NCBI GenBank assembly: GCA_025996865.1
Contig: BNTV01000139.1
Coordinates: 1-11,792 of the forward strand
Length of the DNA: 11,792 bases
From: Bacteroidia bacterium
GTDB taxonomy: Bacteria; Bacteroidota; Bacteroidia; Bacteroidales; Azobacteroidaceae
Direction: 5' to 3'
Position numbers and translations under genes: made by a program. Shown here one piece after another: positions 2,478 to 11,792 of the stretch. Within the stretch, counting starts at the first letter, position 1, and every line of letters begins with the position of its first letter. The notes under the pieces were generated by a model. That model was not told the DNA's origin and made no database searches. It saw nothing but the letters and a program-made list of their open reading frames with translations.

Positions 2478-3725
2478 ATGAATATATTAATGGCAAATTG
2501 GGCATGGTACCCAACAGGTGGAGATTGGACTTATATCCATAGTATTATTGACATTTATAAATCACAAGGACATACTATTATCCCATTTAGTATGCACCAC
2601 GATAAGAATCTATACACGATTTATAACCGATATTTTGTTGATAATATCAATTATCGAGATTTGAGTTCAAAAATAAATTTAAAATCAGGATATAAGATAG
2701 CAACAAAAACAATTTATTCGTTTGAAGCAAAAAAGAAAATAGAGCTATTATTAAATGAAAATTCTGTTGATATCGTTCAATTAAACAGTATTACAAACTC
2801 TATTACACCCAGTATTATTCCTGTAATTAAAAAAAGAAAGATTCCTATTGTTTGGCGAATTTTAGATTACAAATTAATTTGCCCTAATGCAACTCTTTAT
2901 CGCTACGATGATGCTCAAACTTGTGAAGTATGTAAAAAGCATAAATATTACAATTGCATTATTCATAAATGTAAAAAACAATCGTTACTTGCAAGCATTG
3001 TTGCCGCAATGGGGGGATATTTTTATGCTATTCATCCCTATTACAAAGATGTCGATATTTTTCTTTTCCAAAGTGAATTTACAAGAGATATGTTTGTGAA
3101 ATTTGGTTATGATGTAAATCGGACAAAAATTATTGAAAATCCATACGATTGCTCGTCCGTCAATAAATCAAACTCTGCAGAGGAAAATTATATACTCTAT
3201 TTTGGTCGGTTAGACAAAGAAAAAGGAGTTATGACTCTCATTGAAGCTATGAAAACGATTCTTGATATAGAGTTAAAAATTATCGGTAATGGCGATGAAT
3301 ATAAAAATTGCATGGATTATATTAAAATCAACCACTTAAAGAATGTTAGTTTGTTAGGTCCAAAATGGGGTAAAGAATTAGAACTGATATTAAAGGATTG
3401 TAGATTCGTTGTAGTGCCATCAGAATGGCACGAGCCAAGCCCATATGTGGTATTGCAAGCATTTTCGCATTGCAAACCGGTTATTGCTTCCAATATGGGA
3501 GGTTTAAATGACTTGATTACTTCAGATGTCAATGGCTTGTTTTTTAATGCAGGTAATTCGATTGATTTAACATCTAAAATTAATGATTTATGGAGACATC
3601 CTGAAAAAATACAAATATTAGGAAATAATGCACGTAAGATGGTAGAAACGATACATAATCCTCAGCGATATTATGATTTTACTATGCAATTGTTTTCCGA
3701 ATTAATCAATAAAAATAGTTTATGA
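2478..3725 (+). CDS. Glycosyltransferase family 4 with a cysteine cluster (GT-B fold)
   Basis: A 415-residue retaining-type GT-B enzyme for repeat-unit assembly in the cytoplasm. The N-terminal acceptor domain begins with MANWAWYPTGGDWTY (glycine-rich loop). The C-terminal donor domain starts near residue 236 with YILYFGRLDKEKGVMTLIEA and includes LLGPKWGKELELIL and PSEWHEPSPYVVLQAFSHC. Between about 135 and 165 it carries five cysteines, C135, C149, C152, C160 and C165. From memory a similar cysteine-rich insertion occurs in a subgroup of bacterial GT4 enzymes; a structural metal is plausible but unproven. The usual donor-site E-x7-E motif here reads E319 to Q327, so the second glutamate is a glutamine. 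The gene begins 2 bases after the polymerase and overlaps the next gene by ATGA. Substrate unknown. Confidence 0.92.
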   Translation: MNILMANWAWYPTGGDWTYIHSIIDIYKSQGHTIIPFSMHHDKNLYTIYNRYFVDNINYRDLSSKINLKSGYKIATKTIYSFEAKKKIELLLNENSVDIVQLNSITNSITPSIIPVIKKRKIPIVWRILDYKLICPNATLYRYDDAQTCEVCKKHKYYNCIIHKCKKQSLLASIVAAMGGYFYAIHPYYKDVDIFLFQSEFTRDMFVKFGYDVNRTKIIENPYDCSSVNKSNSAEENYILYFGRLDKEKGVMTLIEAMKTILDIELKIIGNGDEYKNCMDYIKINHLKNVSLLGPKWGKELELILKDCRFVVVPSEWHEPSPYVVLQAFSHCKPVIASNMGGLNDLITSDVNGLFFNAGNSIDLTSKINDLWRHPEKIQILGNNARKMVETIHNPQRYYDFTMQLFSELINKNSL

Positions 3726-4642
3726 ATATTTTAATTGTAGGCGGGAATGGATTTATCGGTTCTCATTTAATTGACGAACTAATGAACAGAGGACATCAAA
3801 TTCGAGTTTTTGATATGTCTTATGAACGTTTTAGGCAGCCATTCCCTAATGTTGACTACAGAATTACATCATTAGATAATACAAGTGAATTGTATGAAGC
3901 TCTACTCGGTATAGATATTATATTTTATTTAGCCAGTGCGTCGGTTCCGAGTTCTTCTAATATTGATACTGTAACTGATGTAAATAAGAATTTAATACCT
4001 CTATTAAATCTTTTAAATTTATCTATCAAATTAAATATTAGAAGAATTGTATATTTTTCATCAGGAGGAGCTGTTTATGGAAACCCTCATATTATTCCTA
4101 TACCGGAAGAACATGCTACGAATCCAGTATCTTCTTATGGAATACTTAAATTAACAATTGAAAAATATTTAATGCTTTATCAGAGAATATATGGTTTAAA
4201 TCCATTAATTATTAGACCGTCAAATCCATTTGGTCCCCGTCAGGGTCATTATAATGCTCAAGGGGTAATATCTACTTTTCTAGTAAAGATTAAAAACAAT
4301 GAGCCAATTACGATTTTTGGAGATGGAAATTCCCCCAAAGATTATATTTATATAACAGATTTCATACATGATTGTGTTGATTTAGCGGTTAAGAATGAAA
4401 CAGGTATTTTTAATATCGGAAATGGAAATGGAACTACAGTGAATGAGATCGTTTCTATGATAAAAACTATTACCCAAAAAGATCCTGAAATTATTAAAAC
4501 AGAGAAGCAAAAGTATGACGTTGAACAATTTATTTTAGATAACACAAAACAGCAATCTATACTTGGGGAAAAAAAAAGAATGTCCATTTATGATGGAATT
4601 AAAGAAACTTGGCATTGGATTAACAATTATTATAATAATTGA
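3722..4642 (+). CDS. NAD-dependent epimerase/dehydratase, extended SDR (UDP-sugar 4-epimerase-like)
   Basis: A 306-residue cytoplasmic enzyme expected to epimerise or dehydrate a nucleotide-activated sugar for the repeat unit. The Rossmann motif GGNGFIG (G7, G10, G13) follows the first strand, and D32 of VFDM fits the NAD ribose-binding position. The catalytic region shows YFSSGGAVYG (S113/S114) and SSYGILK with the Y139-x3-K143 pair of extended SDRs. Sugar-binding motifs RPSNPFGPRQ and FGDGNSPKDYIYITD match the GalE/WbpP-like branch. The length is typical. It overlaps the GT4 stop by ATGA. Reaction specificity (Glc/Gal, GlcNAc/GalNAc or uronic acid) cannot be decided; GalE itself is usually a little longer. 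The upstream GT4 may use its product, but that is only suggested by adjacency. Confidence 0.9.
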   Translation: MNILIVGGNGFIGSHLIDELMNRGHQIRVFDMSYERFRQPFPNVDYRITSLDNTSELYEALLGIDIIFYLASASVPSSSNIDTVTDVNKNLIPLLNLLNLSIKLNIRRIVYFSSGGAVYGNPHIIPIPEEHATNPVSSYGILKLTIEKYLMLYQRIYGLNPLIIRPSNPFGPRQGHYNAQGVISTFLVKIKNNEPITIFGDGNSPKDYIYITDFIHDCVDLAVKNETGIFNIGNGNGTTVNEIVSMIKTITQKDPEIIKTEKQKYDVEQFILDNTKQQSILGEKKRMSIYDGIKETWHWINNYYNN

Positions 4643-10677: not shown

Positions 10678-11565
10678 ATGATTATGGAAAAAATAGATAA
10701 AATTATATTTGGTGATAATCAATTTTTCGGGATTAATCACATGTCGCAGGAAAAAGCGCAACAGTTGTCTGAAAAATTTTTCAATATTGAAAATATCTAC
10801 AAAGTGTATGATATTGCTTTTGCCAATGGAATACAAGCTGTGATGCTCAACAGTAACGACAGAGCAAGGGAAATCTGCGATTATTTTCGCAATCATAAAT
10901 CTCAATATGGCCATTTATCGTGGTATCCTTCCATTCCCTACCCGCATAAATATGCCAATATGGTGAATGAAAAAGGGATTTTCCCCGCCATCAATGATGT
11001 TTTATTCAAAAATAATACGGCCTTGGGTGTTCTGGGAATGGTAGCCAAAGGCGGTATGGCTGTTCTGAATAAAGATGCTATCGAACTAATGAAAATGTTG
11101 GTGGATGTGGAAGCGAAAATCTATAAAGGGCTGAATGTCAAAGTTATTTTCTTGCAAAATATTATTGTTGATTTGTTGTTGGGCTATGATTTTAAAGATG
11201 TGTTTTATGAATATTGCGAATATATACGAAAAAAATATCATGCTATACCGGGTTTGATTACTCAAAATTTACCTTTCTTAAAGAAAAAATTAGAAGAATG
11301 GCAGATTGAAGAAGTTGTTATTTGCAGTTCCATCAATAAAATAGGTTATTTGATGTCGCCGGATGTACCAACGTATGTTGAAACGATAAACAACAACCAT
11401 TCGGATAAATATCAATTAATGGCGATGTCCACATTGGCCTCGGGCGCCATTCGTGCCAAAGATGCTTACGAATTTATTAATTCCCTGAATTTGCAATCGG
11501 TGGTATTCGGAGCGTCTTCGGAAAAGAATATTCAAGAAACAGTTAGTTTGATAAATATAAAATGA
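10678..11565 (+). CDS. Uncharacterised protein, possibly TIM-barrel/aldo-keto-reductase-like
   Basis: A 295-residue soluble protein I cannot assign firmly. It opens with a strand and glycine loop, IIFGDNQFFGINH (about 8-20), then YKVYDIAFANGIQAVMLNSND, HLSWYPSIPYP, TALGVLGMVAKGGMAV, VKVIFLQNIIVDLLLGYDF, VVICSSINKIGYLMSP and a C-terminal MSTLASGAIRAKDAYEFIN followed by VVFGASSEKNIQET. The alternating strand-helix layout and the C-terminal GASSxxNIxET phrase recall aldo-keto-reductase-type TIM barrels, where a similar ending binds the cofactor phosphate. I do not see a standard D-Y-K-H catalytic tetrad, so it may be a non-oxidative barrel enzyme or a divergent aldo-keto reductase. Start is ATG 10678 or 10684. 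It sits 4 bases after the Gfo/Idh gene and overlaps the next epimerase by ATGA, so it is embedded in the sugar-modification operon. Confidence refers to the gene being real; its function is open. Confidence 0.75.
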   Translation: MIMEKIDKIIFGDNQFFGINHMSQEKAQQLSEKFFNIENIYKVYDIAFANGIQAVMLNSNDRAREICDYFRNHKSQYGHLSWYPSIPYPHKYANMVNEKGIFPAINDVLFKNNTALGVLGMVAKGGMAVLNKDAIELMKMLVDVEAKIYKGLNVKVIFLQNIIVDLLLGYDFKDVFYEYCEYIRKKYHAIPGLITQNLPFLKKKLEEWQIEEVVICSSINKIGYLMSPDVPTYVETINNNHSDKYQLMAMSTLASGAIRAKDAYEFINSLNLQSVVFGASSEKNIQETVSLINIK

Positions 11566-11792
11566 CAATTCTCATCACCGGCATCCACGGCTTCGTCGGT
11601 TCTAATCTTGTGTCGGCGCTCAAAGCCGGGCATTCCATCTATGGTTTGGACATCATTTCTCCCGAAAAAGAAGGAGTTATCAAAACATTTTCGTGGGATG
11701 ATGTAGGGGCGTTGCGCGCAACGCCCCTACCGGACATCGACACCATTATCCATCTGGCAGGCAAAGCGCACGATACAAAAAACAAGAGCCAA
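11562..11792 (+). CDS. NAD-dependent epimerase/dehydratase (SDR), N-terminal part only
   Basis: The start overlaps the previous stop by ATGA, and 77 codons run open to the window end. MTILITGIHGFVGSNLV gives the extended-SDR Rossmann motif GIHGFVG (G7, G10, G13); GLDI supplies the acidic residue after strand two (D32), and IIHLAGKAHDTKN is the strand-four motif with H-L-A-G. In Bacteroidales, proteins with this IHLAGKAHD phrase often sit near the end of capsule or O-antigen loci next to an initiating sugar-phosphate transferase; I recall this from general knowledge and could not check it. The likely substrate is a UDP-sugar. A perfect 28-base palindrome lies in frame at codons 48-57 and adds about 9-10 residues before strand four. 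The C-terminal half and catalytic YxxxK lie outside the window. Confidence 0.85.
   Translation, partial: MTILITGIHGFVGSNLVSALKAGHSIYGLDIISPEKEGVIKTFSWDDVGALRATPLPDIDTIIHLAGKAHDTKNKSQ
11703..11730 (+). repeat. Perfect 28-base palindrome inside the epimerase coding sequence
   Basis: The half-site GTAGGGGCGTTGCG (11703-11716) is followed directly by its exact reverse complement (11717-11730), with no mismatch. It is far richer in G+C than its surroundings. It is translated in frame as V-G-A-L-R-A-T-P-L plus one shared codon, between SWDD and DIDTIIHLAG. Its form (short, GC-rich, fully symmetric, GTAGGGGC ends) resembles dispersed palindromic repeats seen in several bacterial phyla; whether it is repeated elsewhere in this genome cannot be told from one copy. 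Confidence 0.85.

What the first reader, a model, noticed from the sequence alone, without database searches (positions are those of the whole stretch)
11703..11730. A palindromic repeat element apparently captured in frame within an epimerase gene
A mismatch-free 28-base palindrome (half-site GTAGGGGCGTTGCG) lies inside the open reading frame and keeps it open. It encodes roughly V-G-A-L-R-A-T-P-L-P, placed exactly between the third part of the Rossmann domain (SWDD) and strand four (IDTIIHLAGKAHD). The other complete epimerase in this window (3722-4642) has only a short link there (LLGIDIIFYLAS). The likely explanation is insertion of a mobile palindromic repeat into a surface loop, tolerated because about 30 bases were added in frame, much like the Rickettsia palindromic elements that insert into genes. 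The mRNA would also carry a very stable hairpin in its coding region.
Basis: partly seen in the sequence, partly recalled or inferred. Interest (0 to 1): 0.75.

Follow-up and report, generated by a model that had tools for sequence, protein, structure and literature searches.

The report
Mobile palindrome inside many bacterial proteins
A 28-letter DNA palindrome in this sugar-epimerase gene is one copy of a repeat scattered through the genome and through distantly related bacteria, and in many genes, essential ones included, it sits in frame, so the predicted protein carries it as a short extra loop.

Summary
The 28-bp perfect palindrome at 11703-11730 is real and not chance. The source genome has 68 copies of the type GTARRRRCG-N10-CGYYYYTAC. 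With variable spacing allowed, 60 of 64 are exactly 28 bp. The arms are fixed; the inner 10 bp vary but stay nearly symmetric. 38 of the 54 copies I could read lie in ORFs of at least 120 aa, a little below the share of random positions. Hosts include LeuS, ValS (twice), AroB and beta-galactosidase.

Eight of 119 parsed epimerase homologues carry a tag (VGALRATPL or a variant) at this place. The net gain is 5 residues over the common linker, not about 10. LeuS, ValS and AroB have similar favoured loops, where other species carry other repeats or a DUF559 endonuclease domain.

The exact 28-mer also occurs in genomes labelled as five other lineages; the four of these that are held carry 7-36 copies of the type.

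No mobilising enzyme was found: Y1 and DUF559 genes examined are not flanked by it. New variant of a known kind.

The parts
11703..11730 (.). 28-bp perfect palindrome, a copy of the dispersed repeat (core TTGCGCGCAA)
11703..11732 (+). codons 48-57 of the epimerase, V-G-A-L-R-A-T-P-L from the palindrome and P from its last base plus CG
   Evidence: and the homologue comparison
11562..11792 (+). 5' part (77 codons) of an NAD-dependent epimerase gene, cut by the contig end
   Evidence: PF01370, E 3.1e-8

Best explanation
The palindrome is a copy of a non-autonomous mobile DNA repeat: 28 bp, arms GTA-RRRR-CG paired with CG-YYYY-TAC, and a free but nearly always symmetric 10-bp core. It lands in genes almost as often as elsewhere. 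A landing in a gene survives if it falls in one of the two stop-free frames, keeps the frame, and lies in a loop that tolerates it; the predicted protein then carries a 9-10 residue tag. Shown: copy number, symmetry, open frames, tagged and untagged homologues. Inferred: it moves as a single-stranded hairpin handled in trans by an enzyme not yet identified, with loss or trimming of target bases (about 0.4 likely); and hairpin-templated repair copies changes from one arm to the other, which keeps copies symmetric while the core drifts (about 0.5 likely, core replacement being the alternative). The confidence below is for the first part: a mobile repeat captured in frame.
For: 37 half-sites against 0 in the reversed control; 14 places with the exact 28-mer; 60 of 64 arm pairs spaced to exactly 28 bp; inner five pairs symmetric in 44 of 54, one mismatch in 9; 32 of 58 relatives including own have the type; copies in 38 of 54 cases in ORFs >=120 aa, nine of ten scanned hosts with a Pfam family; tagged and untagged homologues of the epimerase, LeuS, ValS and AroB, with at least 8 and 10 state changes on the epimerase tree; orthologous copies differ by 23 symmetric against 17 one-sided pair changes.
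Against: No clean empty site at high identity was found, so no insertion event is seen directly. Net gain is +5 residues at both epimerase sites, +4 in LeuS, +6 to +7 in ValS site 1, about 0 to +3 in ValS site 2 and +9 in AroB, so there is no single insertion size. No mobilising enzyme was linked. 18 of 119 epimerase homologues have a longer native linker than the tagged ones. The open frame of genic copies is partly by construction, because I searched for ORFs. No transcript or protein data.
Confidence: 0.85

Rival explanations
1. It is an ordinary GTAG-type REP mobilised by a RAYT (REP-associated tyrosine transposase, Y1/HUH), as described in Proteobacteria and Cyanobacteria.
For: GTAG at the end, short palindrome, many copies; the genome has 12 Y1_Tnp matches; within the genus palindrome and Y1 counts correlate (Spearman 0.41, p 0.016).
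Against: Corrected for genome size the genus correlation is 0.24, p 0.17, and over all 58 genomes 0.06, p 0.67; 12 of 32 palindrome-bearing genomes have no Y1 match (many are incomplete); of 41 Y1 loci examined, 39 hold no such palindrome and 2 hold one about 1.1 kb away. GTAG is paired here, unpaired in GTAG REPs (PMC3733652, abstract and part of section 4).
Confidence: 0.15
2. The DUF559 endonuclease elements found in the same LeuS and ValS loops mobilise it: the short palindrome is their satellite.
For: In-frame DUF559 domains sit in the same LeuS and ValS loops, bounded by other palindromic repeats.
Against: None of 30 DUF559 loci holds a 28-type palindrome; the boundary repeats are of other sequence; 21 of 58 genomes have DUF559 while 32 have the palindrome. 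Permissive loops explain the shared sites more simply.
Confidence: 0.05
3. The repeated appearance at one codon comes from one old insertion followed by losses, core conversion and recombination between species, not from repeated new insertions.
For: Boundaries and net length are constant within a loop; parsimony cannot tell gain from loss; same-site copies with different cores exist.
Against: Tagged proteins are scattered among untagged ones with different flanking residues, which would need many losses.
Confidence: 0.3
4. Ordinary coding sequence that happens to be palindromic.
For: None beyond the open frame.
Against: Identical 28-mers in unrelated genes and outside ORFs; most homologues lack the residues.
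Confidence: 0.01

Closest known systems
Rickettsia palindromic elements (RPE)
   Same: Dispersed palindromic repeats, intergenic and also in frame inside conserved protein genes; the protein keeps a tag (PMC2229807, passages seen).
   Different: RPE are given as 105-146 bp and Rickettsia-specific there; here 28 bp, in Bacteroidota and other lineages, of unrelated sequence.
GTAG REP superfamily (Di Nocera et al. 2013, PMC3733652)
   Same: GTAG end, short stem-loop, complementary variation in the stem, intragenic copies; one pair of recB genes with REPs about at the same site.
   Different: There GTAG is unpaired, copies are mostly intergenic, RAYT genes are often close, and GTAG repeats were reported from Proteobacteria, Cyanobacteria, Chloroflexi and the PVC group, not Bacteroidetes (abstract, passages, section 4 part 1, sections 15-16).
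MITEs
   Same: Non-autonomous repeat with inverted symmetry.
   Different: MITEs are 70-300 bp with 15-30 bp terminal inverted repeats in PMC3733652; no cognate IS was found here.
Very small mobile repeats of cyanobacteria (Elhai et al. 2008)
   Same: Recalled: repeats of about 21-27 bp dispersed in Nostoc, some in genes.
   Different: Paper not seen; not compared letter by letter.

Membership tests
Rickettsia palindromic element (RPE) | Dispersed palindromic repeat | tested here: met
Rickettsia palindromic element (RPE) | In-frame copies inside conserved protein genes | tested here: met
   homologues
Rickettsia palindromic element (RPE) | 105-146 bp and Rickettsia-specific | tested here: not met
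   28 bp; hosts are Bacteroidota and other lineages
GTAG REP | GTAG at one end | tested here: met
   both ends, since the palindrome is perfect
GTAG REP | GTAG motif unpaired | tested here: not met
   GTAG pairs with CTAC (12 pairs in the RNA fold; in the DNA 14 of 14 complementary)
GTAG REP | Mostly intergenic | tested here: not met
   38 of 54 in ORFs >=120 aa, against 875 of 1060 random windows and 38 of 53 copies; some ORFs may be spurious
GTAG REP | Close to RAYT genes | tested here: not met
   39 of 41 Y1 loci without a copy, 2 with one about 1.1 kb away; RAYTs not separated from other Y1 proteins
MITE | Ends match a cognate IS; target duplication | tested here: inconclusive
   No recurrent transposase-like neighbour seen by eye; no clean empty site
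Cyanobacterial very small mobile repeats | Sequence identity with described families | not testable with these tools
   paper not held; recalled only

The most novel reading that the evidence does not exclude
In this group of bacteria a few surface loops of essential enzymes act as shared landing pads. Unrelated palindromic repeats and an in-frame DUF559 endonuclease keep arriving in the same loop, and the 28-bp palindrome at the same codon with a fixed net length, so insertion is site-directed (homing-like) rather than random landing filtered by selection; and the 28-bp palindrome, multi-copy in genomes labelled as several phyla, is the smallest form of such an element and spreads between phyla.
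Probability: 0.12. Interest if true: 0.88.

Novelty: new variant of a known kind. Interest (0 to 1): 0.63.

Why it matters
It shows protein-coding palindromes well outside Rickettsia, at almost random density in coding DNA, and in essential enzymes. Because tagged and untagged relatives of one gene exist side by side, the cost of an inserted tag, the way palindromes move, and how they stay symmetric become testable. The identical 28-mer in genomes labelled as several phyla suggests that very small elements can cross phyla.

Tried and rejected
RAYT link: 41 Y1 loci examined of the 12 (own) and the longer list; 2 hold a copy about 1.1 kb away, 39 none; raw genus correlation 0.41 (p 0.016) falls to 0.24 (p 0.17) given genome size. 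DUF559 link: no 28-type copy in 30 loci. Recurrent neighbour gene in 324 loci: the 25 largest ORF clusters were judged by eye from their sequence starts and looked like phage structural genes; no Pfam run. A constant 28-in/13-out rule: holds at both epimerase sites, not at LeuS, ValS or AroB. Isolate plasmids and phages: no match for a 30-mer holding the palindrome (no positive control). Rfam: no match in the window at gathering scores. A recalled core variant: 3 viral stretches. Literature: 134 and 143 papers hold the arm 9-mers; the 20 listed of each were unrelated by title. Searches on termite/Bacteroidetes palindromes, DUF559 and RAYT listed nothing that by title describes this; listings only.

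Rows dropped before counts: 14 of 68 own copies were not held; epimerase site 2, 105 of 120 parsed; site 1, 110 parsed with 12 over-long reads, redone with 119; LeuS 113, ValS site 1 118, ValS site 2 102 of 120; AroB 23 of 30 loci; 7 and 13 of 100 proteins had no state in the tree counts; pairs with identical flanks and strongly asymmetric partners were left out, and its nine differing pairs are not all independent (L370 appears twice, L263 three times).

Full report
What is there. At 11703-11730 lies GTAGGGGCGTTGCGCGCAACGCCCCTAC, a perfect 28-bp palindrome, starting at codon 48 of an epimerase gene that begins at 11562 and is cut by the contig end (PF01370). As RNA it forms a 12-pair hairpin with a 4-base loop.

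It is a repeat. The half-site occurs 37 times in the source genome (5.42 Mb, 421 contigs), with 0 in the reversed control. Fourteen places hold the exact 28-mer, counted from the list. Letting the arms vary, GTAGRGRCG-N(0-26)-CGYCYCTAC gives 64 places, and fixing N at 10 gives 60, so 60 of 64 are exactly 28 bp. GTARRRRCG-N10-CGYYYYTAC gives 68, of which I could read 54. The inner five pairs, left free by the pattern, are fully symmetric in 44, with one mismatch in 9 and two in 1. Viral contigs show the same trend: zero and one mismatch in 60 and 31 of 98 for GGGG arms, 44 and 50 of 102 for AGAC arms. So the ends are fixed, and the core is free but close to symmetric. The window's core was not among the 98 and once among the 102.

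Where copies lie. 38 of the 54 are inside ORFs of at least 120 aa, 25 in the frame starting V-(E/G/K) and 13 in the next; the third frame holds TAG and cannot occur. The window's own copy counts among the other 16 because its ORF is cut. Random 28-bp windows in the same loci fall in such ORFs 875 of 1060 times, against 38 of 53 copies; at 200 aa it is 749 of 1060 against 36 of 53. So copies are only a little rarer in ORFs than chance. Of ten hosts scanned, nine have a Pfam family at E<=1e-10: LeuS, ValS (two inserts), AroB, a nitrogenase component 1-type protein, beta-galactosidase, an M24 peptidase, a glycosyltransferase 4 protein, an FGGY kinase and an FtsX protein; one (L040) has none. The insert lies inside a domain match in LeuS, ValS site 1, AroB, the nitrogenase-type protein, beta-galactosidase and the FGGY kinase. 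Three paralogous epimerases (C26, C90 and the window) carry the tag at the same place; C26 has a second tag 70 residues on, and the next gene one more.

Tagged and untagged homologues. Of 120 epimerase homologues, 119 could be parsed at site 1: 83 have the common linker, and the eight that are 5 residues longer all carry the tag or a variant (VGALRATPL, VETGRATSL, VGAKKKSPL and others); 18 have a native linker longer still, and looser tags occur at other lengths (P0049, P0050). At site 2, 92 of 105 parsed have 6 residues, eleven tagged ones 11 and one 12. On a tree of 100 proteins with the tags masked, the tag needs at least 8 changes at site 1 and 10 at site 2 (quick tree, 22 of 97 inner branches strongly supported; gain and loss cannot be told apart). 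LeuS: 14 residues in 63 of 113 parsed, 18 in the seven tagged. ValS site 1: 13 in 76 of 118; 19-20 in five tagged, 24 and 25 in two more; by eye also P0264 (17) and P0271 (25). ValS site 2: 13-14 in 87 of 102, tags 14-16. AroB: of 23 loci parsed, own and two relatives carry the 28-bp type with different cores (one shifted), two appear to hold other repeats, and most others a short loop. The net gain is nearly constant within the epimerase and LeuS loops but differs between loops.

The loops are shared. The same LeuS, ValS, AroB and epimerase loops hold other repeats in other species, judged by eye. In 3 of 120 LeuS and 4 of 120 ValS homologues a domain precomputed as PF04480 (DUF559) sits in the same loop, bounded in most by translated repeats. 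In the genome set, ORFs with DUF559 inside read as LeuS (G024, G035, G052), ValS (G022), IleS (G029), a restriction subunit-like protein (G009) and a methylase-like protein (G033); the last three names come from reading the sequences, not from a call.

Other lineages. The exact 28-mer was found in 57 stretches of named genomes. Nine are in records labelled Planctomycetaceae (1), Spirochaetaceae (3), Chitinispirillia (3), Synergistales (1) and Melainabacteria (1); the other 48 bear Bacteroidota names. Whole-genome counts of the type are 7, 28, 14 and 36 for the Planctomycetaceae, Spirochaetaceae, Chitinispirillia and Melainabacteria genomes; the Synergistales genome is not held. Several copies per genome argue against a stray contig, but bin purity was not tested. 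In these loci 30 of 50 Bacteroidota copies and 9 of 10 others lie in ORFs >=120 aa, against 852 of 1000 and 184 of 200 random windows (6 copies near locus ends dropped), so the Bacteroidota copies are depleted in ORFs. That many of these are termite-gut bacteria is recalled; the calls name a termite gut source and Candidatus Symbiothrix only among protein hits.

How it may work. Orthologous or paralogous same-site copies were identical in 28 cases and different in 9; the different ones show 23 symmetric and 17 one-sided pair changes (the nine are not all independent). AroB of G000 and G005, with flanks 87% identical, differ by two symmetric changes only. This fits hairpin-templated correction, or replacement of one core by another. 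The base just outside avoids T (0.07-0.16 of sites) in the five sets. The carrier enzyme is unknown: the Y1 and DUF559 loci examined are not flanked by copies. No clean empty site was found, so the insertion step itself is inferred.

Structure. The model of P0001 (95% identical to the C26 paralogue over 94%) has mean pLDDT 80.8. The site 1 tag (residues 48-56) is coil between a short helix and the strand at 61-64 (block pLDDT 78-80); residues 118-122 of the site 2 tag are under 50. I did not compute surface exposure. In LeuS the tag falls at the start of the editing domain, in a stretch four residues shorter in the solved homologues 1h3n and 2v0c.

Placement. It behaves like the Rickettsia palindromic elements (PMC2229807, passages) and shares the GTAG end of the REP superfamily (PMC3733652: abstract, passages, section 4 part 1, sections 15-16), but fails tested features of both. 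I file it as a new variant of a known kind.

Noticed in passing
L732, L734, L735, L738, L739, L742, L747; P0182, P0206, P0218, P0262, P0265, P0314, P0358: In-frame DUF559 endonuclease domains inside housekeeping genes (LeuS, ValS, IleS and others), bounded by translated palindromic repeats such as SPPEGG...PPSGGLGG.
   Followed up: partly
G004:C22:6393-9746 (ValS): ValS in one open frame of 1319 aa with about 1.2 kb between residues 424 and 431, similar splits in G007 and G008; perhaps an intein or other insert.
   Followed up: no
L363, L365, L370, L660, L678: Other palindromic or repeat-like sequences (for example AACCTGTTAAGTTTTTAAAACTTAACAGGTT) in the same epimerase, neighbouring-gene and AroB loops of other species.
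   Followed up: partly
L618 (C86:12560-16484): Six 28-bp palindromes within 4 kb outside long ORFs, with recurring flanks such as GTCGGGGTAATT and CGTGCGATGCAATTA.
   Followed up: no
C42:20949, C67:19097, C88:1107: Nested copies that grow by a 15-bp step (28 to 43 bp), which would keep a reading frame.
   Followed up: no
Viral-contig loci L157-L360: 96 and 109 stretches of predicted viral contigs hold 28-bp palindromes of the GGGG and AGAC arm types with many other cores; phages may carry them.
   Followed up: partly
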